DNA of 64,000 nucleotides from Basidiobolus meristosporus CBS 931.73 (Eukaryota > Basidiobolomycota > Basidiobolomycetes > Basidiobolales > Basidiobolaceae), in contig MCFE01000037.1 in NCBI GenBank assembly GCA_002104905.1, positions 1 through 64,000 of the forward strand, given 5' to 3'. Positions 4,671 through 57,222 of the stretch are shown here, piece by piece (position 1 is the stretch's first letter; the number at the start of each line of letters is the position of its first letter). The position numbers were made by a program, and so were the translations under genes. The notes under the pieces were generated by a model. That model worked only from the letters and a program-made list of their open reading frames with translations, had not been told where the DNA came from and ran no database searches.

Positions 4671-5056
4671 GACATGAAAATTAGATAAGTTGTCCAAGCA
4701 GCCCCAAACCTTGCACACATGCTCTTGGGACCTTCCTATATCTATTTTATATGCTTGCTATGCCAAGACTATATAAAAATATAAGTACTACTTTTACATT
4801 CCATAAATCATTAAGTGAAAGCCACATAATATACTTGTCCTCCCAATCACTTCCAATATCTCCAAAACTCTTACAACAATTAGAAGATCAAGTAGATTTT
4901 GTGGTTTTCACTTAATGACTTAATGAATGCAGAAGTAAAATTTATACTTTACATGGCCTTAGCAAAGCAAGTGTGCACAATATGTTTAGGTAGACCTCAA
5001 GCATATGTGTGTAAAGTTTGGGACTGATTTGGACAACTCTGAAAATTCTCATGTTT
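4671..5056. repeat. Large imperfect inverted repeat (foldback element)
   Basis: The arm 4671-4825 and the arm 5056-4901 (reverse complement) align over about 155 nt with small gaps. The innermost 18 nt match at 17 of 18 positions (tcattaagtgaaagccac versus the reverse complement of gtggttttcacttaatga). Further out the aligned blocks include gacatgaaaa/aacatgagaa, agttgtcca and cccaaac..tacacacat. The loop is about 75 nt. The arms diverge unevenly, as in an old MITE or foldback element. Confidence 0.7.
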
Positions 5057-41321: not shown

Positions 41322-41329
41322 TATAAATA
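41322..41329 (+). promoter_or_regulatory. TATAAATA box, hexosaminidase copy 1
   Basis: An exact TATAAATA 52 nt before the ATG; the same octamer precedes all seven copies. Confidence 0.75.
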
Positions 41330-41373: not shown

Positions 41374-43059
41374 ATGGTTGCAATTAAATTACTATCCGCC
41401 GTTTCTCTCCTCGCCGCCACTTCCATGGCTTGGGTTTGGCCCTTGCCTGAGAAGATGGAAATCGGTGAGAGCATCCTGACCGTCAGACATGGCTTCGATA
41501 TCGACATCGAGGCGAAGTCCGGAAGAGACATCCTGCGCAGGGCTGTCAAGCGCTACAAAAAGATCATCTTCAACACTGGCGAGTTCGGTGACTTGTTGCA
41601 CCCAGTCACCAAAACTGTGTTCCCCACCCCTACTCCCAACGTGCCGATCCACGAGCCCATCCCCGAGGCCAAGACCACTCGCATCAAGGGTCTTGTCATC
41701 AAGGTCAAGGGGAAGAACACGAAACTGAACCTTGACACCGACGAGTCATACACTCTTGATGTCCCAGCTGATGGCTCACGCGCTGTCATTGAGGCAGAGA
41801 GTGTGTACGGAGCTCTCCGTGGTTTGGAGTCCTTCTCTCAACTCGTTCACTGGAGCAGTGATGTCAACCAACACCGCATCCCCATGGCCCCAGTCAAGAT
41901 CGAGGACAAGCCTGCCTTCCCCCATCGTGGTTTCCTCATCGATACCTCTCGTAACTACCTCCCTGTTGACGACATCAAGCGCATCTTGGATGGCATGTCC
42001 TACAACAAGCTCAACATCTTCCATTGGCACGTCATTGACCAGCACAGCTTCCCCCTCATGACCAAGACTTACCCTGAGCTGGCCATCCACGGAGCCTACA
42101 CCAAGAAGTGGATCTATGATGAGGATGATGTCCGTGAGATTGTCCGCTATGCCAAGGACAGAGCCATCCGTGTGATTCCTGAGTTCGATATTCCAGGCCA
42201 TGCTTACTCCTGGGGTCTGGCTATGCCTGACATCGTCAACTGCATGAACATGCAGCCCGATTGGGACACCTATGCCGCCGAGCCCAACAGCGGACAACTG
42301 GACATCATCAACCCCAAGACTGATGAGGTTGTCCAGAACTTCCTCAAGGAAGTCGCCCAATGGTTCGATGACGACTTCATCCACATCGGTGGTGACGAGG
42401 TCAACATGAAGTGTTGGGAGATCACTCCAGGATACCCCGAGTATCTTGAGAAGCACAACAAGACCATGGAGGATGTGCTCTCCGACTTCGTCATCAAGAC
42501 CCACAAATGGGTCCGTGAGAACAACAAGACCCCCATCACCTGGCAAGAGGCCCTCACCAGTCACAACATCTCCATGGAGAAGGATGTTGCCGTCCAAGTA
42601 TGGCTCAGCCCTGAGGATGCTATTGATGTTGTCCGTGCTGGACACAGAGTGATTTCATCCAGCTATGAAAGATGGTATCTTGACTGCGGTCACGGTGGCT
42701 GGATCAGTGACAACGAAGGCAACTCGTGGTGCGATCCCTTCAAGAGCTGGCAAAAGGCCTACAACTACGACATCACAGCCAACATGACTGCTGAGGAGGC
42801 CAAGCTGGTTATTGGCGGTGAGGCTCCTGCCTGGGCCGAACAAATCGACCCCATGAACATTCACCAAACCTTGTGGCCACGTGGTGCAGCTGTTGCCGAG
42901 GTTCTCTGGTCCGGCATCAAGCTTGAGGACGGCACCTACCGCAAGACCGGTGATGTGTTCCCACGTATTCATGAGCAAAGAGCACGCATGGTTGACCGTG
43001 GTCTTCCTGCCGAGCCTTTGCAACCTTTGTGGTGTGCCCGCAACCCCAGAAATTGCTAA
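41374..43059 (+). CDS. GH20 beta-N-acetylhexosaminidase, copy 1 (A type)
   Basis: An intronless 561-residue enzyme. A signal peptide (MVAIKLLSAVSLLAATSMAW) is followed by VWPLPEK, then an N-terminal GH20b domain and the TIM-barrel catalytic domain with RGFLIDTSRNY, KLNIFHWHVIDQHSFP, IPEFDIPGHAYSW and HIGGDEV. The catalytic Asp-Glu pair of substrate-assisted catalysis is D341-E342. The C-terminus ends WCARNPRNC. By family it removes terminal GlcNAc or GalNAc, chiefly from chitin oligomers, outside the cell. Codon use is biased like the uS8 gene, suggesting strong expression. This is the most divergent copy: it alone has KVKGKNTKLNLDTDESYTLD and GSRAVIEAES at residues ~108-145. Diagnostic A-type residues are FGDLL, PVDDIK, RENNKTP, DPFKSW, DPMNIHQ and GLPAEP. 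Confidence 0.97.
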   Translation: MVAIKLLSAVSLLAATSMAWVWPLPEKMEIGESILTVRHGFDIDIEAKSGRDILRRAVKRYKKIIFNTGEFGDLLHPVTKTVFPTPTPNVPIHEPIPEAKTTRIKGLVIKVKGKNTKLNLDTDESYTLDVPADGSRAVIEAESVYGALRGLESFSQLVHWSSDVNQHRIPMAPVKIEDKPAFPHRGFLIDTSRNYLPVDDIKRILDGMSYNKLNIFHWHVIDQHSFPLMTKTYPELAIHGAYTKKWIYDEDDVREIVRYAKDRAIRVIPEFDIPGHAYSWGLAMPDIVNCMNMQPDWDTYAAEPNSGQLDIINPKTDEVVQNFLKEVAQWFDDDFIHIGGDEVNMKCWEITPGYPEYLEKHNKTMEDVLSDFVIKTHKWVRENNKTPITWQEALTSHNISMEKDVAVQVWLSPEDAIDVVRAGHRVISSSYERWYLDCGHGGWISDNEGNSWCDPFKSWQKAYNYDITANMTAEEAKLVIGGEAPAWAEQIDPMNIHQTLWPRGAAVAEVLWSGIKLEDGTYRKTGDVFPRIHEQRARMVDRGLPAEPLQPLWCARNPRNC

Positions 43060-43610
43060 ATATTATATCCTAACCTTGATTAGGGGCTTTCAGTACAATG
43101 CTCGTGTAGTACTCCCCTAGTTTCGTTTTGTATTCACATTGACTTGATATTTCTATTACGATTATATATAAATTCCATTCTTTACTGAAATCAGATTGAC
43201 GACCGTAAACTTGAAAAGCTCTGTTCTCAAGATACATAGAGTATACAGTGCACTCAAATATGTGAATCATGAAACATGAAATATACTCTTGAGACTAATC
43301 GCTATGGACTCCAACTGGATGAGAATCAAGCTGCTTGTATATATCACAGTTAATTTCTATTTTTGCAAGTGTAGCTAGTGTAACCAAGTTTGTCGGTGAT
43401 CCAAACTACGTCGAATTCGGAACGATTGTCAAAATAGACATATTTTTTGACCAATACGCCCTGGATGTTCGTTGCGACGAACTCGGAAAGGAAGTGATTT
43501 CTATTTCGGGAAGTAAGCGACTGATCAGCTGATTTTTAGAGTAGGGTGTAATTTTCCCGAATTAGTTATATTACGTTGCTCCAGATACTTCATTTCAATG
43601 GTCAGATCGG
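43060..43610. other. Spacer between hexosaminidase copies 1 and 2
   Basis: No similarity to other spacers was seen by eye apart from the TATA box at its end. The frame at 43335-43532 has no domain. Confidence 0.45.
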
Positions 43611-43618
43611 TATAAATA
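43611..43618 (+). promoter_or_regulatory. TATAAATA box, hexosaminidase copy 2
   Basis: Exact octamer 49 nt before the ATG. Confidence 0.75.
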
Positions 43619-43659
43619 TGGAGCTCAGTCCTAGGTGGTAATCAAAAGTTCTCATTTCA

Positions 43660-45345
43660 ATGGTTGCCATTAAGCTTCTCTCCGCCGTCTCACTATTCGC
43701 CGCCACTTCCATGGCTTGGGTTTGGCCCTTGCCTGAGAAGATGGAAATCGGTGAGAGCATCCTGACCGTTAGACATGGCTTCGATATCGACATCGAGGCT
43801 AAGTCCGGAAGAGATATCCTGCGCAGGGCTGTCAAGCGCTACAAGAAGATCATCTTCAACACTGGTGAATATGGTGATCTACTGCACCCAGTCACCAAAA
43901 CTGTGTTCCCCACCCCTACTCCCAACGTGCCGATCCACGAGCCCATCCCCGAGGCCAAGACCACCCGCATCAAGGGTCTTGTCATCAGAGTCAATGGTAA
44001 GAACACTGACTTGAACATCGAGACCGATGAGTCCTACAAACTTGACGTCCCAGCTGATGGCTCAGAGGCTGTCATCGAGGCCGAGACCGTGTACGGAGCT
44101 CTGCGTGGTTTGGAGTCCTTCTCTCAACTTGTTCACTGGAGCAGTGATGTCAACCAACACCGCATCCCCATGGCCCCAGTCAAGATCGAGGACAAGCCTG
44201 CCTTCCCCCATCGTGGTTTCCTCATCGATACCTCTCGTAACTACCTCCCTATCGCTGACATCAAGCGCATCTTGGATGGCATGTCCTACAACAAGCTCAA
44301 CATCTTCCATTGGCACGTCATTGACCAGCACAGCTTCCCCCTCATGACCAAGACCTACCCTGAGCTGGCCATCCACGGAGCCTACACCAAGAAGTGGATC
44401 TACGATGAGGATGATGTCCGTGAGATTGTCCGCTATGCCAAGGACAGAGCCATCCGTGTGATTCCTGAGTTCGATATTCCAGGCCATGCTTACTCCTGGG
44501 GTCTGGCTATGCCCGACATCGTCAACTGCATGAACATGCAGCCCGACTGGGACACCTATGCCGCCGAGCCCAACAGCGGTCAACTGGACATCATCAACCC
44601 CAAGACTGATGAGGTTGTCCAGAACTTCCTCAAGGAAGTCGCCCAATGGTTCGATGACGACTTCATCCACATCGGTGGTGACGAGGTCAACATGAAGTGT
44701 TGGGAGATCACTCCAGGATACCCCGAGTATCTTGAGAAGCACAACAAGACCATGGAGGATGTGCTCTCCGACTTCGTCATCAAGACCCACAACTGGGTCC
44801 GCGACAACAAGAAGACCCCCATCACCTGGCAAGAGGCCCTCACCAGTCACAACATCTCCATGGAGAAGGATGTTGCCGTCCAAGTATGGCTCAGCCCTGC
44901 GGATGCTATAGATGTTGTCCGTGCTGGACACAGAGTGATTTCATCCAGCTATGAAAGATGGTATCTTGACTGCGGTCATGGTGGCTGGATCAGTGACAAC
45001 GAAGGCAACTCATGGTGTGACCCACACAAGAGCTGGCAAAAGGCATACAACTACGACATCACAGCCAACATGACTGCTGAGGAGGCCAAGCTGGTTATTG
45101 GCGGTGAGGCTCCTGCCTGGGCCGAACAAATCGATACCACCAACATTGATCGTACCTTGTGGCCACGTGGTGCAGCTGTTGCCGAGGTTCTCTGGTCCGG
45201 CATCAAGCTTGAGGATGGCACCTACCGCAAGACCGGTGATGTGTTCCCACGTATTCATGAGCAAAGAGCACGCATGGTTGATCGTGGCATTCGTGCTGTA
45301 CCTTTGCAACCTTTGTGGTGTGCTCGTAACCCACGCAATTGCTAA
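43660..45345 (+). CDS. GH20 beta-N-acetylhexosaminidase, copy 2 (B type)
   Basis: 561 residues, same architecture and intact catalytic HIGGDEV as copy 1. It is of B type: YGDLL, VNGKNTDLNIETD, PIADIK, WVRDNKKTP, SPADAID, DPHKSW, DTTNIDR and GIRAVP. Unique to this copy is Phe in the signal peptide (VSLFAAT). Relative to A-type copies it lacks the N-K-T sequon in RENNKTP. Its 3' flank is unrelated to the other copies from the stop codon onward. Confidence 0.97.
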   Translation: MVAIKLLSAVSLFAATSMAWVWPLPEKMEIGESILTVRHGFDIDIEAKSGRDILRRAVKRYKKIIFNTGEYGDLLHPVTKTVFPTPTPNVPIHEPIPEAKTTRIKGLVIRVNGKNTDLNIETDESYKLDVPADGSEAVIEAETVYGALRGLESFSQLVHWSSDVNQHRIPMAPVKIEDKPAFPHRGFLIDTSRNYLPIADIKRILDGMSYNKLNIFHWHVIDQHSFPLMTKTYPELAIHGAYTKKWIYDEDDVREIVRYAKDRAIRVIPEFDIPGHAYSWGLAMPDIVNCMNMQPDWDTYAAEPNSGQLDIINPKTDEVVQNFLKEVAQWFDDDFIHIGGDEVNMKCWEITPGYPEYLEKHNKTMEDVLSDFVIKTHNWVRDNKKTPITWQEALTSHNISMEKDVAVQVWLSPADAIDVVRAGHRVISSSYERWYLDCGHGGWISDNEGNSWCDPHKSWQKAYNYDITANMTAEEAKLVIGGEAPAWAEQIDTTNIDRTLWPRGAAVAEVLWSGIKLEDGTYRKTGDVFPRIHEQRARMVDRGIRAVPLQPLWCARNPRNC

Positions 45346-45909
45346 GATATGTAGCAAGATTATATCATTTGTAAAAGTTACATATTTTGGTTATATATAC
45401 TTTGAATCATCTGAGCTCAGACTGAAAATAAATAATTGGTGTTATTAAAAATAACTTGTATATTTCTTACAATTACTCTAAATGAAATTATTGACCCGGA
45501 GCACTAATATATAATATATTTCTGGGCCGTGTAACCATTACGCTGAAGTATTGTGCCTTACAAAGAATGTAACCAATATTTAGAATTCCGATCGTGACTT
45601 GTTCGTGGGAAAATTTGATTTTGATCGGTATCGTACATTATGATTAATCAATCATTCATCGATTTCTTCCATTCGGATCATTCACCAAACTAGGAATTCA
45701 TTAATATATTCTTTACAGAAGACCACCTCCGTTCAAATCCAGTTTGATGAAATTATGCCTTCTCCACAAATCGCAACATTATTTTATTTCCCAGGCCTAG
45801 ATGTCGCTTTTTGGGAATCGATTTGGCCTCCGCTACTTGAGGCGATTGAAAAGAATGGATGGAAAATCCAGGGCAGCTGGACACTTTCAATTTAATATCC
45901 ACTGAGCAC
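45346..45909. other. Spacer between hexosaminidase copies 2 and 3
   Basis: AT-rich, non-coding; contains the copy 2 3' end (aaataaataattgg near 45426) and the copy 3 promoter. Confidence 0.45.
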
Positions 45910-45917
45910 TATAAATA
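45910..45917 (+). promoter_or_regulatory. TATAAATA box, hexosaminidase copy 3
   Basis: Exact octamer 42 nt before the ATG at 45952. Confidence 0.75.
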
Positions 45918-45951
45918 TGAGGGTCAGCATTGAAATGTGAAAACAATATCA

Positions 45952-47640
45952 ATGGTCGCAATTAAATTATTATCCGCTGTCTCACTCCTCGCCGCCACTT
46001 CCATGGCTTGGGTTTGGCCCTTGCCTGAGAAGATGGAAATCGGTGAGAGCATCCTGACCGTTAGACATGGCTTCGATATCGACATCGAGGCGAAGTCCGG
46101 AAGAGACATCCTGCGCAGGGCTGTCAAGCGCTACAAGAAGATCATCTTCAACACTGGTGAATATGGTGATCTGTTGCACCCAGTCACCAAAACTGTGTTC
46201 CCCACCCCTACCCCCAATGTGCCAATCCACGAGCCCATCCCCGAGGCCAAGACCACCCGCATCAAGGGTCTTGTCATCAGAGTCAATGGTAAGAACACTG
46301 ACTTGAACATCGAGACCGATGAGTCCTACAAACTTGATGTCCCAGCTGATGGCTCAGAGGCCGTCATCGAGGCCGAGACCGTGTACGGAGCTCTCCGTGG
46401 TTTGGAGTCCTTCTCTCAACTCGTTCACTGGAGCAGTGATGTCAACCAACACCGCATCCCCATGGCTCCAGTCAAGATTGAGGACAAGCCTGCCTTCCCC
46501 CATCGTGGTTTCCTCATCGATACCTCTCGTAACTACCTCCCCATCGCTGACGACATCAAGCGCATCTTGGATGGCATGTCCTACAACAAGCTCAACATCT
46601 TCCACTGGCACGTCATTGACCAGCACAGCTTCCCACTCATGACCAAGACCTACCCTGAGCTGGCCATCCACGGAGCCTACACCAAGAAGTGGATCTACGA
46701 TGAGGATGATGTCCGTGAGATTGTCCGCTATGCCAAGGACAGAGCCATCCGTGTGATTCCTGAGTTCGATATTCCAGGCCATGCTTACTCCTGGGGTCTG
46801 GCTATGCCCGACATCGTCAACTGCATGAACATGCAGCCTGACTGGGACACCTATGCCGCCGAGCCCAACAGCGGTCAACTGGACATCATCAACCCCAAGA
46901 CTGATGAGGTTGTCCAGAACTTCCTCAAGGAAGTCGCCCAATGGTTCGATGATGACTTCATCCACATCGGTGGTGACGAGGTCAACATGAAGTGTTGGGA
47001 GATCACTCCAGGATACCCCGAGTATCTTGAGAAGCACAACAAGACCATGGAGGATGTGCTTCTCGACTTCGTCATCAAGACCCACAACTGGGTCCGCGAC
47101 AACAAGAAGATCCCCATCACCTGGCAAGAGGCCCTCACCAGTCACAACATCTCCATGGAGAAGGACGTTGCCGTCCAGGTGTGGCTCAGCCCTGCGGATG
47201 CTATTGATGTTGTTCGTGCTGGACACAGAGTGATTTCATCCAGCTATGAAAGATGGTATCTTGACTGCGGCCACGGTGGCTGGATCAGTGACAACGAAGG
47301 TAACTCATGGTGTGACCCACACAAGAGCTGGCAAAAGGCATACAACTACGACATCACAGCCAACATGACTGCTGAGGAGGCCAAGCTGGTTATTGGCGGT
47401 GAGGCTCCTGCCTGGGCCGAACAAATCGATACCACCAATATCGATCGTACCTTGTGGCCACGTGGTGCAGCTGTTGCCGAGGTTCTCTGGTCCGGCATCA
47501 AGCTTGAGGATGGCACCTACCGCAAGACCGGTGATGTGTTCCCACGTATTCATGAGCAAAGAGCACGTATGGTTGATCGTGGCATTCGTGCTGTACCTTT
47601 GCAACCTTTGTGGTGTGCTCGTAACCCACGCAATTGCTAA
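45952..47640 (+). CDS. GH20 beta-N-acetylhexosaminidase, copy 3 (B type, one-codon insertion)
   Basis: 562 residues from the ATG at 45952, which gives the MVAIK start shared by all copies; the frame is open 15 nt further upstream but without ATG. B-type residues throughout (YGDLL, RDNKKIP, PHKSW, TTNIDR, GIRAVP). It carries an extra GAC at 46549-46554, so that the junction reads PIADDIK where A copies have PVDDIK and B copies PIADIK. It also has LLDFV where all other copies have LSDFV. The catalytic motif HIGGDEV is intact; the insertion lies just before the first barrel strands and its effect is unknown. Confidence 0.96.
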   Translation: MVAIKLLSAVSLLAATSMAWVWPLPEKMEIGESILTVRHGFDIDIEAKSGRDILRRAVKRYKKIIFNTGEYGDLLHPVTKTVFPTPTPNVPIHEPIPEAKTTRIKGLVIRVNGKNTDLNIETDESYKLDVPADGSEAVIEAETVYGALRGLESFSQLVHWSSDVNQHRIPMAPVKIEDKPAFPHRGFLIDTSRNYLPIADDIKRILDGMSYNKLNIFHWHVIDQHSFPLMTKTYPELAIHGAYTKKWIYDEDDVREIVRYAKDRAIRVIPEFDIPGHAYSWGLAMPDIVNCMNMQPDWDTYAAEPNSGQLDIINPKTDEVVQNFLKEVAQWFDDDFIHIGGDEVNMKCWEITPGYPEYLEKHNKTMEDVLLDFVIKTHNWVRDNKKIPITWQEALTSHNISMEKDVAVQVWLSPADAIDVVRAGHRVISSSYERWYLDCGHGGWISDNEGNSWCDPHKSWQKAYNYDITANMTAEEAKLVIGGEAPAWAEQIDTTNIDRTLWPRGAAVAEVLWSGIKLEDGTYRKTGDVFPRIHEQRARMVDRGIRAVPLQPLWCARNPRNC

Positions 47641-48373
47641 AGATACAAGATGGGTTTTGCACATCTAATTGATGGCCCTCATTTTTACATTTGATGTTAA
47701 CAATTTCTTCATTCGATATCTGTAATAAAACCAACTTATTTATGTAATTGATTTGGCAATAGTATCTATGCATTATGTCAATCTACAATGATATTTCCGT
47801 TAGACTAAGAATCTTAGACACGTTTGCCATAAAAGGTATCTCTTTAAATTGCGGAGAACGGAGCACGGAAAATATTCCTCAAATGTATGGGTATCAAATT
47901 GAATTTAAGAGGTTTCTAGAAGTGTAACGAGTCTGGTTGGAAAAGATTTTCACACCATACGAGTGATGGAATGGCACCAATGGCTGTCGCACACAATAAT
48001 TCTAGGTTAGAGAGTACTACGCCACAAAAAGACCACATGGATAGCATTGGGAACTGAAATGGGTCATATGTCGCTTCAGCAGGAATACAAAATCACGTAT
48101 TAACTAAAAAAAAATTCCCCTCTACTAAAGTAAAATGGTATAACTAGGCTTAAGGCCATGCCTTATCCAAATCAAATGTGGAGAACAACATGTGGGAATG
48201 CTACTTGAAATTTTCAGTTAAATTGATAGCTAAATTTAATGATTATATAGTTCGCGATCGCTACACTAGTTTAAATTTAGTGAATTCCTTTGAACCCCGA
48301 CTGTTTATTGGCTGTATCACAGGTCATCAGAAGAATTAGGTCTCCACAAACTGATTCCTAGAAATGAAGAACA
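47641..48373. other. Spacer between hexosaminidase copies 3 and 4
   Basis: The longest spacer in the array (795 nt to the ATG); AT-rich and non-coding, with an A8 tract near 48107. Confidence 0.45.
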
Positions 48374-48381
48374 TATAAATA
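48374..48381 (+). promoter_or_regulatory. TATAAATA box, hexosaminidase copy 4
   Basis: Exact octamer 62 nt before the ATG at 48436. Confidence 0.75.
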
Positions 48382-48435
48382 AGTCAGTTATTGACGTTGT
48401 CTACAAATCACAAGAATCAAAATCCATTTACAATA

Positions 48436-50121
48436 ATGGTAGCAATCAAACTCCTCTCCGCTGTCTCACTCCTGGCTGCTTCTTCCATGGCTTGGGTTTG
48501 GCCCTTGCCTGAGAAGATGGAAATCGGTGAGAGCATCCTGACAGTCAGACATGGCTTCGATATCGACATCGAGGCTAAGTCTGGAAGAGATATCCTACGC
48601 AGGGCTGTCAAGCGCTACAAGAAGATCATCTTCAACACTGGTGAATATGGTGATCTGTTGCACCCAGTCACCAAAACTGTGTTCCCCACCCCTACTCCCA
48701 ACGTGCCAATCCACGAGCCCATCCCCGAAGCCAAGACCACTCGCATCAAGGGTCTTGTCATCAGAGTCAATGGTGAGAACACTGACTTGAACATCGAGAC
48801 CGATGAGTCCTACAAACTTGACGTCCCAGCTGATGGCTCAGAGGCTGTCATCGAGGCCGAGACCGTGTACGGAGCTCTCCGTGGTTTGGAGTCCTTCTCT
48901 CAACTCGTTCACTGGAGCAGTGATGTCAACCAACACCGCATCCCCATGGCCCCAGTCAAGATCGAGGACAAGCCTGCCTTCCCCCATCGTGGTTTCCTCA
49001 TCGATACCTCTCGTAACTACCTCCCCATCGCTGACATCAAGCGCATCTTGGATGGCATGTCCTACAACAAGCTCAACATCTTCCACTGGCACGTCATCGA
49101 CCAGCACAGCTTCCCCCTCATGACCAAGACCTACCCTGAGCTGGCCATCCACGGAGCCTACACCAAGAAGTGGATCTACGACGAGGATGATGTCCGTGAG
49201 ATTGTCCGCTATGCCAAGGACAGAGCCATCCGTGTGATTCCTGAGTTCGATATTCCAGGCCATGCTTACTCCTGGGGTCTGGCTATGCCCGACATCGTCA
49301 ACTGCATGAACATGCAGCCTGACTGGGACACCTATGCCGCCGAGCCCAACAGCGGTCAACTGGACATCATCAACCCCAAGACTGATGAGGTTGTCCAGAA
49401 CTTCCTCAAGGAAGTCGCCCAATGGTTCGATGATGACTTCATCCACATCGGTGGTGACGAGGTCAACATGAAGTGTTGGGAGATCACTCCAGGATACCCC
49501 GAGTATCTTGAGAAGCACAACAAGACCATGGAGGATGTGCTCTCCGACTTCGTCATCAAGACCCACAACTGGGTCCGCGACAACAAGAAGATCCCCATCA
49601 CCTGGCAAGAGGCCCTCACCAGTCACAACATCTCCATGGAGAAGGATGTTGCCGTCCAGGTGTGGCTCAGCCCTGCGGATGCTATTGATGTTGTCCGTGC
49701 TGGACACAGAGTGATTTCATCCAGCTATGAAAGATGGTACCTTGACTGCGGTCACGGTGGCTGGATCAGTGACAACGAAGGCAACTCATGGTGTGACCCA
49801 CACAAGAGCTGGCAAAAGGCATACAACTATGACATCACAGCCAACATGACTGCTGAGGAGGCCAAGCTGGTTATTGGCGGTGAGGCTCCTGCCTGGGCCG
49901 AACAAATCGATATCACCAATATCGATCGTACCTTGTGGCCACGTGGTGCAGCTGTTGCCGAGGTTCTCTGGTCCGGCATCAAGCTTGAGGATGGCACCTA
50001 CCGCAAGACCGGTGATGTGTTCCCACGTATTCATGAGCAAAGAGCACGCATGGTTGATCGTGGCATTCGTGCTGTACCTTTGCAACCTTTGTGGTGTGCT
50101 CGTAATCCACGCAATTGCTAA
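48436..50121 (+). CDS. GH20 beta-N-acetylhexosaminidase, copy 4 (B type)
   Basis: 561 residues from the ATG at 48436 (the open frame reaches back to 48391 without an ATG). B-type block residues (YGDLL, PIADIK, RDNKKIP, SPADAID, PHKSW, GIRAVP), with VNGENTDL instead of VNGKNTDL as in copies 5-7. A private substitution gives DITNIDR where copies 2, 3 and 7 have DTTNIDR. The signal peptide has AASS as in copies 5-7. Catalytic HIGGDEV intact. Confidence 0.97.
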   Translation: MVAIKLLSAVSLLAASSMAWVWPLPEKMEIGESILTVRHGFDIDIEAKSGRDILRRAVKRYKKIIFNTGEYGDLLHPVTKTVFPTPTPNVPIHEPIPEAKTTRIKGLVIRVNGENTDLNIETDESYKLDVPADGSEAVIEAETVYGALRGLESFSQLVHWSSDVNQHRIPMAPVKIEDKPAFPHRGFLIDTSRNYLPIADIKRILDGMSYNKLNIFHWHVIDQHSFPLMTKTYPELAIHGAYTKKWIYDEDDVREIVRYAKDRAIRVIPEFDIPGHAYSWGLAMPDIVNCMNMQPDWDTYAAEPNSGQLDIINPKTDEVVQNFLKEVAQWFDDDFIHIGGDEVNMKCWEITPGYPEYLEKHNKTMEDVLSDFVIKTHNWVRDNKKIPITWQEALTSHNISMEKDVAVQVWLSPADAIDVVRAGHRVISSSYERWYLDCGHGGWISDNEGNSWCDPHKSWQKAYNYDITANMTAEEAKLVIGGEAPAWAEQIDITNIDRTLWPRGAAVAEVLWSGIKLEDGTYRKTGDVFPRIHEQRARMVDRGIRAVPLQPLWCARNPRNC

Positions 50122-50794
50122 TATTGGATGAACAGTATAAGTTAAAAATCAATGATCTTGTGACAGCTTGCTGAATATTAATAAATATACCCCTTTTGTG
50201 TACTGTAATAACAGTTTCATTTGTTGTGGGTTCGAATATTGAAATTTACGCTAGTTATTTACGATAAATACATTTGCGGGTGATACGAAATGGTTCGGCA
50301 ATATAGAGTAAATCTCAAACCATTTTCGTTGAAATAATGTAAATTTCTAACTATAGGCGAAAAGATTTCCTTATATGATCTAATTACAGCTCGTGGTAGT
50401 AAAATCATCCTGATGCCTGGATTTTATATGCCATCCAACCAAGTAATAATGCTTATACCGTTTGAGATGAATGGTAACTATTAATTAATATCACCCCTCG
50501 AAAATTCTACAAATGAAGCAGTGTCATCCATTCTAGATTGGAGATTACCTTGACTAGAATGGTTAGAAAAAATCATCCAGGAAATTCTATTTCCCTTAAG
50601 AGTTGTGGCGGGCGCGATCATTTTCTCACTGCGAATAAATATATATACCATTTGAAACTCAGTGATGGAAAATAGACATATTGTTTTTTAGTACATTGCG
50701 CGTCGGACCTAGAATGACAAATGAAATATAGCCAAAGTATTTTGAGAAAAGTCAGCGAGTGGAGTAAGAATCTTCTTTTAGTGTAGAATTTCCC
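50122..50794. other. Spacer between hexosaminidase copies 4 and 5
   Basis: Non-coding, AT-rich; a second TATA-like run (aataaatatatatacc, ~50634-50650) lies further upstream of copy 5. Confidence 0.45.
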
Positions 50795-50802
50795 TATAAA
50801 TA
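50795..50802 (+). promoter_or_regulatory. TATAAATA box, hexosaminidase copy 5
   Basis: Exact octamer 51 nt before the ATG at 50846. Confidence 0.75.
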
Positions 50803-50845
50803 GCGTACGGTATTGGTATGCATTTCGTACAAAAAATTCGATTCT

Positions 50846-52531
50846 ATGGTTGCGATCAAACTACTTTCTGCTGTCTCCCTCCTCGCCGCATCTTCCATGG
50901 CTTGGGTTTGGCCCTTGCCTGAGAAGATGGAAATCGGTGAGAGCATCCTGACAGTCAGAAATGGCTTCGATATCGACATTGAGGCTAAGTCTGGAAGAGA
51001 CATCCTGCGCAGGGCTGTCAAGCGCTACAAGAAGATCATCTTCAACACTGGCGAGTTCGGTGACTTGTTGCACCCAGTCACCAAAACTGTGTTCCCCACC
51101 CCCACCCCCAATGTGCCAATCCACGAGCCCATCCCCGAGGCCAAGACCACTCGCATCAAGGGTCTTGTCATCAGAGTCAATGGTGAGAACACTGACTTGA
51201 ACATCGAGACCGATGAGTCCTACAAACTTGACGTCCCAGCTGATGGCTCAGAGGCTGTCATCGAGGCCGAGACCGTGTACGGAGCTCTCCGTGGTTTGGA
51301 GTCCTTCTCTCAACTCGTTCACTGGAGCAGTGATGTCAACCAACACCGCATCCCCATGGCCCCAGTCAAGATCGAGGACAAGCCTGCCTTCCCCCATCGT
51401 GGTTTCCTCATCGATACCTCTCGTAACTACCTCCCTGTTGACGACATCAAGCGCATCTTGGATGGCATGTCCTACAACAAGCTCAACATCTTCCACTGGC
51501 ACGTCATTGACCAGCACAGCTTCCCCCTCATGACCAAGACCTACCCTGAGCTGGCCATCCACGGAGCCTACACCAAGAAGTGGATCTACGATGAGGATGA
51601 TGTCCGTGAGATTGTCCGCTATGCCAAGGACAGAGCCATCCGTGTGATTCCTGAGTTCGATATTCCAGGCCATGCTTACTCCTGGGGTCTGGCTATGCCC
51701 GACATCGTCAACTGCATGAACATGCAGCCCGACTGGGACACCTATGCCGCCGAGCCCAACAGCGGACAACTGGACATCATCAACCCCAAGACTGATGAGG
51801 TTGTCCAGAACTTCCTCAAGGAAGTCGCCCAATGGTTCGATGACGACTTCATCCACATCGGTGGTGACGAGGTCAACATGAAGTGTTGGGAGATCACTCC
51901 AGGATACCCCGAGTATCTTGAGAAGCACAACAAGACCATGGAGGATGTGCTCTCCGACTTCGTCATCAAGACCCACAAATGGGTCCGTGAGAACAACAAG
52001 ACCCCCATCACCTGGCAAGAGGCCCTCACCAATCACAACATCTCCATGGAGAAGGACGTTGCCGTCCAGGTGTGGCTCAGCCCTGAGGATGCTATTGATG
52101 TTGTCCGTGCTGGACACAGAGTGATTTCATCCAGCTATGAAAGATGGTATCTTGACTGCGGTCACGGTGGCTGGATTAGTGACAACGAAGGCAACTCGTG
52201 GTGCGATCCCTTCAAGAGCTGGCAAAAGGCATACAACTACGACATCACAGCCAACATGACTGCTGAGGAGGCCAAGCTGGTTATTGGCGGTGAGGCTCCT
52301 GCCTGGGCCGAACAAATCGACCCCATGAACATTCACCAAACCTTGTGGCCACGTGGTGCTGCTGTTGCCGAGGTTCTCTGGTCCGGTATCAAGCTTGAGG
52401 ATGGCACCTACCGCAAGACCGGTGATGTGTTCCCACGTATTCATGAGCAAAGAGCACGCATGGTTGACCGTGGTCTTCCTGCCGAACCTTTGCAACCTTT
52501 GTGGTGTGCACGCAACCCAAGAAACTGCTAA
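50846..52531 (+). CDS. GH20 beta-N-acetylhexosaminidase, copy 5 (A type, mosaic)
   Basis: 561 residues from the ATG at 50846. A-type at FGDLL, PVDDIK, RENNKTP, SPEDAID, PFKSW, DPMNIHQ and GLPAEP, but B-like in the VNGENTDLNIETD...GSEAVIEAET block, where copy 1 differs. Private change: TVRNGFD where all others have TVRHGFD. It shares TNHN with copy 6 (TSHN elsewhere). Catalytic residues intact. Confidence 0.97.
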   Translation: MVAIKLLSAVSLLAASSMAWVWPLPEKMEIGESILTVRNGFDIDIEAKSGRDILRRAVKRYKKIIFNTGEFGDLLHPVTKTVFPTPTPNVPIHEPIPEAKTTRIKGLVIRVNGENTDLNIETDESYKLDVPADGSEAVIEAETVYGALRGLESFSQLVHWSSDVNQHRIPMAPVKIEDKPAFPHRGFLIDTSRNYLPVDDIKRILDGMSYNKLNIFHWHVIDQHSFPLMTKTYPELAIHGAYTKKWIYDEDDVREIVRYAKDRAIRVIPEFDIPGHAYSWGLAMPDIVNCMNMQPDWDTYAAEPNSGQLDIINPKTDEVVQNFLKEVAQWFDDDFIHIGGDEVNMKCWEITPGYPEYLEKHNKTMEDVLSDFVIKTHKWVRENNKTPITWQEALTNHNISMEKDVAVQVWLSPEDAIDVVRAGHRVISSSYERWYLDCGHGGWISDNEGNSWCDPFKSWQKAYNYDITANMTAEEAKLVIGGEAPAWAEQIDPMNIHQTLWPRGAAVAEVLWSGIKLEDGTYRKTGDVFPRIHEQRARMVDRGLPAEPLQPLWCARNPRNC

Positions 52532-53172
52532 AGGGCATACCAAGATAATTTTGATATAGTATTGACTAAATTTCATGTTGTAAAGGCACATAATAGCATT
52601 TCAATAAAATCAATGAATAGCATCAATGTAGTCCCATTTTTGAATTAAGTCCTATAAATCTGGATTTGCAACTTATTTAAACGAATGAATTGTGACCTCT
52701 AGAATCCAGAATAATATTATAATGGGAGAGGTAGCACCAAGGAGCCATTTTACTGCACCCGTTTGTTACACGGAGATTTAATGTGCACACTTCACTAATG
52801 CAAGGACAGATTGTATAATCAGCTAGGATGAAGATAATGGCGCCACAGATACACGTTACTAACGCCTTCATTTCTCGAGAATTTCGAAGGAATGACATAT
52901 CAAATACTTGGAAATTCATTAGCGGCCTCAAAATCAGTAGGATAGTTCTCATTATGGTACTGTAACGTGAAAGCAATATTTTAATTTAACTCGAAATTGA
53001 TGCCAATACGATGCTTTTACCATTGGTAATATTACCATTGAAAGTTGTAGCCACATAACTGGCCTTTCCTTTTCATTCTACCCTGTTACTTATGGTTTGA
53101 TTGATTGTAAACTTCGTGCGTAAAAGAATTTACTATTGCGAATTTTCCAGCGTCCCGCGAAAGAACTGACAA
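52532..53172. other. Spacer between hexosaminidase copies 5 and 6
   Basis: Non-coding. The minus-strand frame at 52677-52976 shows no domain and is treated as chance. Confidence 0.45.
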
Positions 53173-53180
53173 TATAAATA
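53173..53180 (+). promoter_or_regulatory. TATAAATA box, hexosaminidase copy 6
   Basis: Exact octamer 70 nt before the ATG, the longest distance of the seven. Confidence 0.75.
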
Positions 53181-53242
53181 CTCACGACCATGCCCAATAG
53201 TTAAAGCATACCCCATAACAGAAAACACCAACAGTAACATAA

Positions 53243-54928
53243 ATGGTGGCAATCAAGCTTCTCTCTGCTGTCTCCCTCCTCGCCGCATCTTCCATGGCTT
53301 GGGTTTGGCCCTTGCCTGAGAAGATGGAAATCGGTGAGAGCATCCTGACCGTTAGACATGGCTTCGATATCGATATCGAGGCTAAGTCCGGAAGAGATAT
53401 CCTGCGCAGGGCTGTCAAGCGCTACAAGAAGATCATCTTCAACACTGGCGAGTTCGGTGACTTGTTGCACCCAGTCACCAAAACTGTGTTCCCCACCCCC
53501 ACCCCCAATGTGCCAATCCACGAGCCCATCCCCGAGGCCAAGACCACTCGCATCAAGGGTCTTGTCATCAGAGTCAATGGTGAGAACACTGACTTGAACA
53601 TCGAGACCGATGAGTCCTACAAACTTGATGTCCCAGCTGATGGCTCAGAGGCTGTCATCGAGGCCGAGACCGTGTACGGAGCTCTCCGTGGTTTGGAGTC
53701 CTTCTCTCAACTCGTTCACTGGAGCAGTGATGTCAACCAACACCGCATCCCCATGGCTCCGGTCAAGATCGAGGACAAGCCTGCCTTCCCCCATCGTGGT
53801 TTCCTCATCGATACCTCTCGTAACTACCTCCCCATCGCTGACATCAAGCGCATCTTGGATGGCATGTCCTACAACAAGCTCAACATCTTCCACTGGCACG
53901 TCATCGACCAGCACAGCTTCCCCCTCATGACCAAGACCTACCCTGAGCTGGCCATCCACGGAGCCTACACCAAGAAGTGGATCTACGATGAGGATGATGT
54001 CCGTGAGATTGTCCGCTATGCCAAGGACAGAGCCATCCGTGTGATTCCTGAGTTCGATATTCCAGGCCATGCTTACTCCTGGGGTCTGGCTATGCCTGAC
54101 ATCGTCAACTGCATGAACATGCAGCCCGATTGGGACACCTATGCCGCCGAGCCCAACAGCGGTCAACTGGACATCATCAACCCCAAGACTGATGAGGTTG
54201 TCCAGAACTTCCTCAAGGAAGTCGCCCAATGGTTCGATGACGACTTCATCCACATCGGTGGTGACGAGGTCAACATGAAGTGTTGGGAGATCACTCCAGG
54301 ATACCCCGAGTATCTTGAGAAGCACAACAAGACCATGGAGGATGTGCTCTCCGACTTCGTCATCAAGACCCACAAATGGGTCCGTGAGAACAACAAGACC
54401 CCCATCACCTGGCAAGAGGCCCTCACCAATCACAACATCTCCATGGAGAAGGACGTTGCCGTCCAGGTGTGGCTCAGCCCTGAGGATGCTATTGATGTTG
54501 TCCGTGCTGGACACAGAGTGATTTCATCCAGCTATGAAAGATGGTATCTTGACTGCGGTCACGGTGGCTGGATTAGTGACAACGAAGGCAACTCGTGGTG
54601 CGATCCCTTCAAGAGCTGGCAAAAGGCATACAACTACGACATCACAGCCAACATGACTGCTGAGGAGGCCAAGCTGGTTATTGGCGGTGAGGCTCCTGCC
54701 TGGGCCGAACAAATCGACCCCATGAACATTCACCAAACCTTGTGGCCACGTGGTGCTGCTGTTGCCGAGGTTCTCTGGTCCGGCATCAAGCTTGAGGACG
54801 GCACCTACCGCAAGACCGGTGATGTGTTCCCACGTATTCATGAGCAAAGAGCACGCATGGTTGACCGTGGTCTTCCTGCCGAGCCTTTGCAACCTTTGTG
54901 GTGTGCTCGCAACCCCAGAAACTGCTAA
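53243..54928 (+). CDS. GH20 beta-N-acetylhexosaminidase, copy 6 (A/B mosaic)
   Basis: 561 residues. A type at FGDLL and throughout the C-terminal third (RENNKTP, TNHN, SPEDAID, PFKSW, DPMNIHQ, GLPAEP), but B type at PIADIK in the middle, which makes it the clearest A-B-A mosaic. The end of its signal-peptide coding sequence (TCC CTC CTC GCC GCA TCT) is identical to that of copy 5. Catalytic HIGGDEV intact. Confidence 0.97.
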   Translation: MVAIKLLSAVSLLAASSMAWVWPLPEKMEIGESILTVRHGFDIDIEAKSGRDILRRAVKRYKKIIFNTGEFGDLLHPVTKTVFPTPTPNVPIHEPIPEAKTTRIKGLVIRVNGENTDLNIETDESYKLDVPADGSEAVIEAETVYGALRGLESFSQLVHWSSDVNQHRIPMAPVKIEDKPAFPHRGFLIDTSRNYLPIADIKRILDGMSYNKLNIFHWHVIDQHSFPLMTKTYPELAIHGAYTKKWIYDEDDVREIVRYAKDRAIRVIPEFDIPGHAYSWGLAMPDIVNCMNMQPDWDTYAAEPNSGQLDIINPKTDEVVQNFLKEVAQWFDDDFIHIGGDEVNMKCWEITPGYPEYLEKHNKTMEDVLSDFVIKTHKWVRENNKTPITWQEALTNHNISMEKDVAVQVWLSPEDAIDVVRAGHRVISSSYERWYLDCGHGGWISDNEGNSWCDPFKSWQKAYNYDITANMTAEEAKLVIGGEAPAWAEQIDPMNIHQTLWPRGAAVAEVLWSGIKLEDGTYRKTGDVFPRIHEQRARMVDRGLPAEPLQPLWCARNPRNC

Positions 54929-55494
54929 ATGGCTTACCCTAAATGCTTCGACCAGGTTATGTTGAAGATGAAAGCCGAATAAGCATCATGATTTTTGAAG
55001 TTTTTTAATAATTAAGTTATAAATCAACAATAACGGCAATGATATAAATAAACACATTTCCCTACTAATTGCAGACGTGTGAATATTTCCAGACAATCTT
55101 TTCTATTGAAAACCTTTCCCCTGGGATGTCGAGAGTATCAAATTCATATGGTGGCGTAATATGGTTAGTTTTTATTCACTCACTGTGATGATCCCAGATA
55201 AATTTAGTTAAAATCCTTGAGCATTTCATCCTTAATGGTTATATAGCGTAAGTTACAGTGATTAATACTTGCTATTTATAGCTTGATTAAGTCCCAACAA
55301 ATCCAAGTGATTTTCTATAAATTCGGTGAGCTTAAACTGCATTTGGATAGAATGGAAATTGTGGAGGTCTTCAGGCTGGAGTAGGATGTTGTTTTTAATC
55401 TGAATTACCTCCATTCATAGTCACATCGAGCAGCCATATATAGCACCTGGACCTTCCTAGATTCCAGCACGCATTCCGACTCCTTATAAATAAT
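54929..55494. other. Spacer between hexosaminidase copies 6 and 7
   Basis: Non-coding, AT-rich; no features beyond the copy 7 promoter. Confidence 0.45.
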
Positions 55495-55502
55495 GCAACC
55501 AG
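55495..55502 (+). promoter_or_regulatory. TATAAATA box, hexosaminidase copy 7
   Basis: Exact octamer 42 nt before the ATG. Confidence 0.75.
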
Positions 55503-55536
55503 GATTCTGTCTAGGAACAATTCATTTCCTCACTCG

Positions 55537-57222
55537 ATGGTTGCTATTAAACTACTCTCCGCTGTTTCGCTCCTTGCCGCCTCTTCCATGGCTTGGGTTT
55601 GGCCCTTGCCTGAGAAGATGGAAATCGGTGAGAGCATCCTGACCGTTAGACATGGCTTCGATATCGACATTGAGGCTAAGTCCGGAAGAGACATCCTGCG
55701 CAGGGCGGTCAAGCGCTACAAGAAGATCATCTTCAACACTGGTGAATATGGTGATCTGTTGCACCCAGTCACCAAAACTGTGTTCCCCACCCCTACTCCC
55801 AATGTGCCAATCCATGAGCCCATCCCCGAAGCCAAGACCACTCGCATCAAGGGTCTCGTCATCAGAGTCAATGGCGAGAACACTGACTTGAACATCGAGA
55901 CCGATGAGTCCTACAAACTTGATGTCCCAGCTGATGGCTCAGAGGCTGTCATCGAGGCCGAGACCGTGTACGGAGCTCTCCGTGGTTTGGAGTCCTTCTC
56001 TCAACTCGTTCACTGGAGCAGTGATGTCAACCAACACCGCATCCCCATGGCTCCGGTCAAGATCGAGGACAAGCCTGCCTTCCCCCATCGTGGTTTCCTC
56101 ATCGATACCTCCCGTAACTACCTCCCCATCGCTGACATCAAGCGCATCTTGGATGGCATGTCCTACAACAAGCTCAACATCTTCCACTGGCACGTCATCG
56201 ACCAGCACAGCTTCCCCCTCATGACCAAGACCTACCCTGAGCTGGCCATCCACGGAGCCTACACCAAGAAGTGGATCTACGATGAGGATGATGTCCGTGA
56301 GATTGTCCGCTATGCCAAGGACAGAGCCATCCGTGTGATTCCTGAGTTCGATATTCCAGGCCATGCTTACTCCTGGGGTCTGGCTATGCCCGACATCGTC
56401 AACTGCATGAACATGCAGCCCGACTGGGACACCTATGCCGCCGAGCCCAACAGCGGTCAACTGGACATCATCAACCCCAAGACTGATGAGGTTGTCCAGA
56501 ACTTCCTCAAGGAAGTCGCCCAATGGTTCGATGACGACTTCATCCACATCGGTGGTGACGAGGTCAACATGAAGTGTTGGGAGATCACTCCAGGATACCC
56601 CGAGTATCTTGAGAAGCACAACAAGACCATGGAGGATGTGCTCTCCGACTTCGTCATCAAGACCCACAACTGGGTCCGCGACAACAAGAAGATCCCCATC
56701 ACCTGGCAAGAAGCCCTCACCAGTCACAACATCTCCATGGAGAAGGATGTTGCCGTCCAGGTGTGGCTCAGCCCTGCGGATGCTATAGATGTTGTCCGTG
56801 CTGGACACAGAGTGATTTCATCCAGCTATGAAAGATGGTATCTTGACTGCGGTCACGGTGGCTGGATCAGTGATAACGAAGGCAACTCATGGTGTGACCC
56901 ACACAAGAGCTGGCAAAAGGCATACAACTACGATATCACAGCCAACATGACTGCTGAGGAGGCCAAGCTGGTTATTGGCGGTGAGGCTCCTGCCTGGGCC
57001 GAACAAATCGATACCACCAACATTGATCGTACCTTGTGGCCACGTGGCGCTGCTGTTGCCGAGGTTCTCTGGTCCGGCATCAAGCTTGAGGATGGCACCT
57101 ACCGCAAGACCGGTGATGTGTTCCCACGTATTCATGAGCAAAGAGCACGTATGGTTGACCGTGGCATTCGTGCTGTACCTTTGCAACCTTTGTGGTGTGC
57201 TCGTAACCCACGCAATTGCTAA
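55537..57222 (+). CDS. GH20 beta-N-acetylhexosaminidase, copy 7 (B type)
   Basis: 561 residues, B type throughout (YGDLL, VNGENTDL, PIADIK, RDNKKIP, TSHN, SPADAID, PHKSW, DTTNIDR, GIRAVP). It differs from copy 4 at the protein level only at DTTNIDR versus DITNIDR. Last copy of the array; the next gene is on the other strand. Catalytic HIGGDEV intact. Confidence 0.97.
   Translation: MVAIKLLSAVSLLAASSMAWVWPLPEKMEIGESILTVRHGFDIDIEAKSGRDILRRAVKRYKKIIFNTGEYGDLLHPVTKTVFPTPTPNVPIHEPIPEAKTTRIKGLVIRVNGENTDLNIETDESYKLDVPADGSEAVIEAETVYGALRGLESFSQLVHWSSDVNQHRIPMAPVKIEDKPAFPHRGFLIDTSRNYLPIADIKRILDGMSYNKLNIFHWHVIDQHSFPLMTKTYPELAIHGAYTKKWIYDEDDVREIVRYAKDRAIRVIPEFDIPGHAYSWGLAMPDIVNCMNMQPDWDTYAAEPNSGQLDIINPKTDEVVQNFLKEVAQWFDDDFIHIGGDEVNMKCWEITPGYPEYLEKHNKTMEDVLSDFVIKTHNWVRDNKKIPITWQEALTSHNISMEKDVAVQVWLSPADAIDVVRAGHRVISSSYERWYLDCGHGGWISDNEGNSWCDPHKSWQKAYNYDITANMTAEEAKLVIGGEAPAWAEQIDTTNIDRTLWPRGAAVAEVLWSGIKLEDGTYRKTGDVFPRIHEQRARMVDRGIRAVPLQPLWCARNPRNC

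What the first reader, a model, noticed from the sequence alone, without database searches (positions are those of the whole stretch)
41374..57222. Seven-copy tandem array of GH20 hexosaminidases evolving in concert
Seven same-strand genes of 561-562 residues are nearly identical in coding DNA, including synonymous sites, while the 600-800 nt spacers show no evident similarity. Diagnostic residues define an A type (copies 1, 5, 6: FGDLL, RENNKTP, DPFKSW, GLPAEP) and a B type (copies 2, 3, 4, 7: YGDLL, RDNKKTP or RDNKKIP, DPHKSW, GIRAVP). The order is A-B-B-B-A-A-B, with block exchanges: copy 6 is A at both ends but PIADIK in the middle, and copy 5 has a copy-4-like middle block. This is best explained by repeated gene conversion. 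All seven keep HIGGDEV and look active. Such a tight active multi-copy array of a chitin-degradation enzyme is unusual in fungi as far as I know.
Basis: partly seen in the sequence, partly recalled or inferred. Interest (0 to 1): 0.85.

Follow-up and report, generated by a model that had tools for sequence, protein, structure and literature searches.

The report
Gene array homogenised only inside genes
A gut-associated fungus carries seven side-by-side copies of a chitin-digesting enzyme gene whose coding parts appear to be copied onto each other again and again while the DNA between them has drifted apart, and much the same pattern shows in three other digestive-enzyme gene arrays looked at in this genome.

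Summary
The window is contig C613 of Basidiobolus meristosporus CBS 931.73. Seven intact GH20 genes (561-562 codons) are 93.7-98.3% identical; their 600-795 bp spacers have no blastn similarity, and only a TATAAATA box recurs upstream of all seven. Homology stops at ATG and stop codon. Gene conversion is well supported: mosaic sites cluster (0 of 5000 permutations as low), 6 of 21 pairs carry significant shared runs, and silent divergence is U-shaped (9 of 9 silent-capable codons vary in the first ten, 14 of 178 in codons 201-400). Silent sites at both ends are near saturation: the array is old, only its core is young. A GH18 intron differs at 0 of 56 sites between two copies without similar flanks, against silent-site constraint and spliced-cDNA donors. 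Two GH20 isoforms (I: 1,5,6; II: 2,3,4,7) persist; replacements are enriched among fixed differences (odds ratio about 5, P 0.0004-0.001), hinting that selection resists conversion. The process is a known kind; this is an unusually clean, multi-array case in one assembly.

The parts
41374..43059 (+). GH20 copy 1 (type I), 561 aa, intact
43660..45345 (+). GH20 copy 2 (type II), 561 aa, intact
45952..47640 (+). GH20 copy 3 (type II), 562 aa; one extra Asp codon after PIAD, where the 40-row alignment (copy 3 not a row) shows no insertion
48436..50121 (+). GH20 copy 4 (type II), 561 aa, intact
50846..52531 (+). GH20 copy 5 (type I), 561 aa; shares a run of 33 polymorphic sites with copy 4 (alignment columns 301-596)
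53243..54928 (+). GH20 copy 6 (type I at the diagnostic sites near both ends, PIADIK in the middle), 561 aa
55537..57222 (+). GH20 copy 7 (type II), 561 aa, intact
43060..43659 (.). spacer 1, no blastn similarity to the other spacers
45346..45951 (.). spacer 2, no blastn similarity to the other spacers
47641..48435 (.). spacer 3, no blastn similarity to the other spacers; single place in the genome
50122..50845 (.). spacer 4, no blastn similarity to the other spacers
52532..53242 (.). spacer 5, no blastn similarity to the other spacers
54929..55536 (.). spacer 6, no blastn similarity to the other spacers
41322..41329 (+). TATAAATA box of copy 1 (-52)
43611..43618 (+). TATAAATA box of copy 2 (-49)
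45910..45917 (+). TATAAATA box of copy 3 (-42)
48374..48381 (+). TATAAATA box of copy 4 (-62)
50795..50802 (+). TATAAATA box of copy 5 (-51)
53173..53180 (+). TATAAATA box of copy 6 (-70)
55485..55492 (+). TATAAATA box of copy 7 (-52)

Best explanation
An old tandem array of a GH20 beta-N-acetylhexosaminidase gene (N-terminus looks like a secretion signal) in Basidiobolus meristosporus evolves in concert by ectopic gene conversion at the DNA level, mostly without crossover. After the duplications the spacers drifted beyond recognition while purifying selection kept the coding regions alike, so the coding regions became the only substrate for strand exchange. Tracts (fitted scale about 200 bp) must lie inside the homologous coding block, so silent sites in the core are rewritten often and those within about 30 bp of the ends hardly ever; this gives sharp edges at ATG and stop and a U-shaped silent divergence. 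Each copy keeps its own promoter region, of which only a TATAAATA box is still shared by all, so the array would be seven separately transcribed genes for nearly the same enzyme (dosage, perhaps with varied regulation). Two isoforms persist in the face of conversion, mainly through differences in the 3' third. SHOWN: anatomy, mosaic, gradient, second array, much the same rule in one GH18 and one S8 array. INFERRED: non-crossover conversion as the event, age of the array, separate transcription, dosage and isoform function, secretion and activity.
For: Sharp homology edges at ATG and stop. Mosaic: PHI-like statistic 0 of 5000 permutations as low in array A and 0 of 5000 in array B; Bonferroni-significant runs in 6 of 21 A pairs and 3 of 28 B pairs. 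pS by 50-codon window within A is 0.313 at the 5' end, 0.034 at the minimum and 0.329 at the 3' end, against 0.36-0.67 for A x B. The gradient survives correction for the A x B profile (partial r -0.235, P 2.4e-6, 394 codons) and holds within type II alone (partial r -0.172, P 6e-4). Natural control: in array B, copies b2-b5 still have homologous upstream DNA (6 of 6 pairs, 73-88% over 101-394 bp) and pS 0.087 in codons 1-10 against 0.75 in A; at their 3' end pS is 0.63. Dispersed paralogues C523/C1022 have dS 1.55 with dN 0.05, so linkage seems to matter. GH18 copies g1/g2: intron 0 of 56 and 262 consecutive bases identical, first 30 nt 7 of 30 different, last 160 nt 27 of 160 different, no blastn match between their 400-bp flanks; g1/g3: unalignable intron, exon 2 body 16 of 1156 different. 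The 7 A copies form one clade (100/99); the 9 B rows group at 80/94, and 8 of them without b9 at 99/95.
Against: The A x B control also falls slightly away from the ends (rho -0.205, P 4e-5), so some regional silent-site constraint, or rare old exchange between arrays, may add to the gradient. The tract-length fit explains little per-codon variance (SSE 61.5 against 67.2 flat). Within type II alone there is no significant PHI signal (1246 of 5000) and no significant run (0 of 6 pairs), so conversion in A is shown mainly by exchange between types and by the gradient; clustering of type-diagnostic sites could in part reflect selection. Order in the array does not predict similarity (rho 0.19, P 0.4). 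PHI and GENECONV were my own re-implementations. One assembly, no reads, no second strain.
Confidence: 0.86

Rival explanations
1. Recent tandem duplication: the copies are alike because they are young; spacers differ because of insertions or rearrangement.
For: High coding identity. In array B spacers 2 and 3 still match at 88% over 383 bp, so duplication of units with their spacers did occur there.
Against: No two A spacers match by blastn, although all six are of similar length; silent sites at the gene ends are near saturation (pS 0.75 and 0.67), so the copies are old; sites are mosaic.
Confidence: 0.04
2. Unequal crossing-over inside the genes (copy-number turnover) rather than non-crossover conversion drives the homogenisation.
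For: Array sizes differ (7 and 10). B spacers 1-4 show graded upstream homology, as expected if units were duplicated at different times.
Against: Recent unequal crossovers should leave near-identical spacer pairs; none exists in A. Internal mosaic blocks such as copies 4/5 at alignment columns 301-596 need two nearby switches.
Confidence: 0.15
3. Strong codon or RNA constraint on silent sites keeps the copies alike without any exchange.
For: GC3 is 0.665-0.690 in the four array genes measured (a1, a4, b7, b10) against 0.493 in paralogue p523; A x B silent divergence is lowest mid-gene.
Against: A x B pS is 0.43-0.83, so silent sites do change; mosaic sites; a GH18 intron is 0 of 56 different between copies without similar flanks; dispersed paralogues reach dS 1.55.
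Confidence: 0.03
4. Reverse-transcribed mRNA (cDNA) is the donor of the conversions, which would explain why only coding regions are homogenised.
For: The GH20 array genes are intronless and homology is bounded by the coding region; GH20 paralogues on C709, C634 and C819 match in separate pieces, as intron-bearing genes would.
Against: In the GH18 array one identical tract runs through the intron (0 of 56), which spliced cDNA cannot give. GH18 and S8 copies keep introns of several unalignable classes while exon 2 is homogenised. Transcripts carry UTRs, but almost no UTR similarity is left in A.
Confidence: 0.08
5. Assembly artefact: repeated copies were created or cross-contaminated by mis-assembly or consensus polishing.
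For: The published genome is PacBio (passage of PMC7466969). Private one-base indels in six of ten B copies look like residual long-read errors.
Against: Each A copy sits between different spacers; the one spacer searched genome-wide is unique; 7 of 7 A frames are intact; the gradient towards the ends and its difference between A and B are not what mis-assembly would produce.
Confidence: 0.03

Closest known systems
Concerted evolution of tandem gene arrays by gene conversion, Trypanosoma brucei survey (PMC1855330, passages read)
   Same: Tandem protein-coding arrays, chimaeric copies, inconsistent phylogenetic signal between parts of the repeat unit.
   Different: In the T. [quoted passage not shown] histone arrays are named as the only opposite case. 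Here all four arrays read lean the opposite way.
Tigriopus californicus GOT1 paralogues (PMC3728101, passages read)
   Different: Two paralogue pairs in an animal; here arrays of 4-10 copies in a fungus, with upstream regions diverged and a gradient up to the start codon.
Yeast ribosomal-protein paralogue pairs with conserved coding regions and divergent UTRs and introns (start of the abstract of PMC5755908 in the listing; Pyne et al. 2005 'Copy correction' seen only as a reference title, content not read)
   Same: Coding regions alike while UTRs and introns diverge.
   Different: Pairs of ribosomal-protein genes, not arrays of digestive enzymes.
GH20 genes of ascomycetes (PMC6415606, passages read)
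   Same: Same enzyme family and chitin-degrading role.
   [quoted passage not shown] here 7 plus 10 tandem copies and matches on eight further contigs.

Membership tests
GH20 beta-N-acetylhexosaminidase | GH20 catalytic domain and N-terminal GH20b2 domain above curated cut-off | tested here: met
   PF00728 334.8 and 322.9 bits (cut-off 22.3); PF14845 83.0 and 82.7 bits (cut-off 27); 2 of the 7 A copies scanned. All 7 matched PF00728 over the cut-off; PF14845 was not tested in the other 5
GH20 beta-N-acetylhexosaminidase | Catalytic Asp-Glu pair and conserved pocket residues | tested here: met
   HIGGDEV in 7 of 7; D341 and E342, with R193, Y435, D437, W459, W487, E489, invariant in the 40-row alignment, which holds copies 1, 2 and 6; the role of each residue is recalled
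GH20 beta-N-acetylhexosaminidase | Measured hexosaminidase activity and secretion | not testable with these tools
   Hydrophobic N-terminus seen by eye only; no signal-peptide tool was run
Concerted evolution by gene conversion | Copies within an array closer to each other than to other arrays or to relatives | tested here: met
   7 of 7 A copies one clade (100/99) beside P0006; 9 B rows group at 80/94 beside P0002, P0007 and P0072, 8 without b9 at 99/95 (b6 left out)
Concerted evolution by gene conversion | Mosaic sites clustered along the gene beyond chance | tested here: met
   0 of 5000 permutations as low in A and in B; 6 of 21 and 3 of 28 pairs with significant runs; not significant within type II alone
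Concerted evolution by gene conversion | Copies cluster by species rather than by position across species | tested here: inconclusive
   P0006 (358 aa, organism not shown) is sister to all 7 A copies (8-row fork 100/100), and P0002, P0007 and P0072 fall beside B; DNA, position and spacers of those genes were not available
Recent tandem duplication | Spacers about as similar as coding regions | tested here: not met
   No blastn similarity between A spacers; local-alignment z near zero on average, single pairs up to 5.9
cDNA-mediated copy correction | Introns never inside converted tracts | tested here: not met
   GH18 g1/g2 tract spans the intron with 0 of 56 differences; not testable in the intronless GH20 array

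The most novel reading that the evidence does not exclude
In Basidiobolus, tandem arrays of secreted digestive enzymes (GH20, GH18, S8) are self-limiting conversion islands. Once spacers and introns have drifted apart, exchange is trapped inside exons and keeps the enzyme uniform while each copy's promoter evolves freely. Selection on a few residues, most of them in the 3' third, holds two GH20 isoforms apart against this flow. The arrays thus decouple regulatory from protein evolution, in a genus for which meiosis had not been documented (PMC3281927 passage, 2012).
Probability: 0.45. Interest if true: 0.68.

Novelty: new member of a known kind. Interest (0 to 1): 0.52.

Why it matters
Gene conversion is often inferred from similarity alone. 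Here one genome offers internal controls: ends next to foreign flanks against ends next to homologous flanks (array A against b2-b5), introns of the same and of different class, and tandem against dispersed paralogues. That makes tract geometry and the brake set by heterology measurable in a fungal genus whose sexual recombination is poorly known. It also suggests how a gut fungus could keep high dosage of one enzyme while letting many promoters diverge.

Tried and rejected
Recent duplication, silent-site constraint, cDNA donors and mis-assembly were weighed and set low (see rivals). Looking for an allelic copy of the array: the DIS3-like neighbour and one spacer have one match each, the downstream flank one full match and four partial ones of 67-77%, so no second haplotype of this locus was found in the assembly. 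In the 84 kb of C613 and 80 kb of C1179 compared, matches over 100 bp outside the arrays were repeat-like only (shorter ones were not printed), so the second array does not look allelic. GH20 remnants elsewhere in the window: none at E 1e-2 (tblastn). Shared upstream motifs: TATAAATA is the only 8-mer in all seven (mean 0.0 in 20 shuffles); single spacer pairs with raised local scores (upstream of copies 2 and 5, z 5.9; upstream 150 bp of 1/2 and 1/4, z 4.2 and 4.0; downstream of 1/2, z 3.7) were not pursued. Array order against divergence: no relation. A first, asymmetric count of fixed differences was replaced by symmetric ones. No structure was predicted and no separate segment trees were built. 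Literature searches: (one search failed). One search (Basidiobolus with gene conversion) gave 2 papers, on minor introns and on mitochondrial codon usage by their titles and abstract starts, neither opened. I saw no report of these arrays in those listings.
Full report
IDENTITY. The window is G000:C613:1-64000 in an 89.0 Mb assembly of 1311 contigs. According to a passage of PMC7466969 that genome was sequenced with PacBio and the strain came from gecko dung; the genome paper itself was not read.

THE ARRAY. Seven uninterrupted GH20 frames on the + strand. Coding identity is 93.65-98.28% over 21 pairs. Spacers are 600-795 bp without blastn similarity. In local alignments against dinucleotide shuffles the mean z was 0.48 for the upstream 600 bp, 1.11 for the upstream 150 bp (which hold the TATA box) and 0.39 for the downstream 300 bp; the highest single pair was 5.9. 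The identity profile drops at the ATG (0.36 in the 10 bp before, 0.86 in the 10 bp after) and at the stop codon (0.90 before, 0.32 after). The one 8-mer present upstream of all seven is TATAAATA, 42-70 bp before each ATG.

SILENT DIVERGENCE. Codon numbers in this paragraph are alignment codons (564 or so; they run a few ahead of copy 1's own numbers after codon 37, because other rows carry extra codons). Within A, pS averages 0.139 and dN/dS 0.086; between A and B pS is 0.53. In 50-codon windows within A it runs 0.313, 0.225, 0.145, 0.089, 0.075, 0.067, 0.034, 0.040, 0.126, 0.199, 0.124, 0.329. In finer bins codons 1-10 reach 0.75 and the last nine 0.67. Counted as codons, 9 of 9 silent-capable codons vary in codons 1-10, 14 of 178 in codons 201-400 and 6 of 8 in the last nine. 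The A x B control is much flatter but not flat (0.43-0.83 in the same bins; rho -0.205 with distance to the nearest end); corrected for it, the A gradient remains (partial r -0.235, P 2.4e-6, 394 codons). Edge divergence within A (0.75) nears that between A and B (0.83), so the A copies may be almost as old as the split of the two arrays (inference).

MOSAIC. 88 informative sites; 84 biallelic ones were tested and 1535 of their 3486 pairs are incompatible. Incompatibility among sites within 100 bp is 0.266 against a permuted mean of 0.441, 0 of 5000 as low. Shared runs significant after Bonferroni occur in 6 of 21 pairs, among them copies 4/5 (alignment columns 301-596), 6/7 (346-581) and 5/6 (931-1550). 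Within type II alone neither test is significant.

SECOND ARRAY. C1179 positions 118224-141229 on the minus strand hold ten copies, b1-b10, full-length ones about 72-76% identical to A in DNA. Eight of them are 94.6-98.1% alike; b9 is 84-88% and the internally deleted b6 84-91% identical to the rest. Two of ten (b7, b10) have an uninterrupted full-length frame as assembled; six carry one to three private one-base indels, mostly in short homopolymers (in b3 only near the very end), and could be miscalls or young pseudogenes; b9 has two indels and b6 is deleted. Spacers upstream of b2-b5 keep 73-88% similarity over 101-394 bp in 6 of 6 pairs. That gives a control: with homologous upstream DNA the 5' end is homogenised (b2-b5 pS 0.087 in codons 1-10), while at the 3' end, where downstream DNA shows little similarity (mean z 1.09, top pair 6.4), it is not (0.63). 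Copies b8 and b10, whose upstream DNA gave no blastn match to the others, are intermediate at the 5' end (0.203).

OTHER ARRAYS. GH18 and S8 families were searched as a check. Four GH18 copies on C779 and four complete S8 copies on C158 were read and compared (L027, L028); a fifth S8 copy cut by the end of the stretch was left out, and the arrays on C863, C350 and C186 and the rest of C158 were not read. In both families similarity begins at or within a few bases of the ATG and ends near the stop codon for most pairs; exceptions are S8 copies s1/s2 (67.5% over 345 bp upstream) and GH18 g3/g4 (72-75% patches upstream). Identity again falls at both ends (per 100 columns GH18 0.80, up to 1.00, 0.81; S8 0.85, up to 1.00, 0.85). 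GH18 g1/g2 have an identical intron (0 of 56), g3/g4 differ at 1 of 71, and between these two classes introns do not align (31 of 56 plus 15 gaps) although the body of exon 2 (1156 columns) differs by only 16-25. In S8, s2/s3 introns differ at 7 of 74 and the other pairs at 32-40 of 66-74. Thus non-coding DNA can be homogenised when it lies inside a converted block, and a diverged intron seems to act as a barrier.

DISPERSED PARALOGUES. C523 and C1022 hold single uninterrupted relatives with dS 1.55 and dN 0.05: similar proteins, near-saturated silent sites, hence no sign of exchange without linkage.

TWO ISOFORMS. 13 codons are fixed for different amino acids between types I and II: 71, 378, 382, 384, 414, 456, 493, 494, 497, 498, 544, 545, 547 in copy 1 numbering. 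With symmetric criteria fixed differences are 11 replacement to 13 silent (strict) or 13 to 15 (relaxed), against 20 to 119 within types (P 0.00098 and 0.00037). Type II has His at 456, where 37 other rows have F 24, Y 12, T 1; type I has His at 497, where they have D 34, E 3. Position 456 lies between invariant W452 and W459. This fits selection keeping two forms apart, but copies are not independent samples and the test is only analogous to McDonald-Kreitman.

COPY 3. It carries one extra Asp codon at a place where the 40-row alignment shows no insertion (copy 3 itself was not a row). It could be a slipped repeat or a misaligned junction of the two types; whether the enzyme still works is unknown.

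RELATIVES. In a tree of 29 rows the 7 A copies form a clade (100/99) beside P0006 (8-row fork 100/100), and nine B rows (80/94; 99/95 without b9) lie with P0002, P0007 and P0072 (96/94). The organisms of those four proteins were not shown. If they are other Basidiobolus species, the A/B split is older than that speciation while each array looks homogenised after it (inference).

LITERATURE (passages only, unless said otherwise). PMC6415606: the majority of 15 fungi have one orthologue in each of two GH20 clades. PMC1855330: the opposite pattern prevails in T. brucei arrays. PMC3728101: exon-restricted conversion with a divergent intron. PMC3281927: B. ranarum at least diploid, meiosis never documented as of 2012. 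PMC6169396 and PMC11105155 mention B. meristosporus but, in the passages seen, not these arrays. PMC8778642: no occurrence of GH20 or tandem.

VERDICT. Real, well supported and broader than first seen. The mechanism is known; the clean internal controls, the recurrence in three enzyme families and the persistence of two isoforms make it a good study case. On re-checking, the B-clade support was lowered to what one search shows and the confidence trimmed from 0.87 to 0.86.

Noticed in passing
G000:C1179:118224-141229 (within L011-L014): Second, unlinked GH20 array of ten copies, about 75% identical in DNA to the window's array: two full-length uninterrupted frames, six copies with private one-base indels, one deleted and one diverged copy.
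   Followed up: yes
G000:C158:14766-41739, C350:90295-108145, C186:1720-14795: Large S8 subtilisin arrays. C186 and C350 share nearly the same distances between some copies (1988; 4683 and 4685; 2182 and 2183), as if they were two haplotypes of one locus.
   Followed up: partly
G000:C779:22754-30646 and C863:1437-8100: GH18 chitinase arrays of four and three copies; C779 shows intron classes and an intron-spanning identical tract. C863 was not read.
   Followed up: partly
window 45952-47640, codon 200 region: Copy 3 has a one-codon GAC insertion that could be a misaligned junction between the GCT-GAC (type II) and GAC-GAC (type I) forms.
   Followed up: partly
window 6742-8145: A 467-aa frame with DUF3472 and a chitin-recognition domain (PF00187) on the same contig.
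   Followed up: no
window 3959-5196 and C613 79252-84000 (L026): Segments that match many places on C1179, probably transposable elements.
   Followed up: no
P0002 and P0072: Two B-like GH20 proteins are both listed on a contig of 6164 bp, perhaps one contig with a tandem pair in another species; organism not shown.
   Followed up: no
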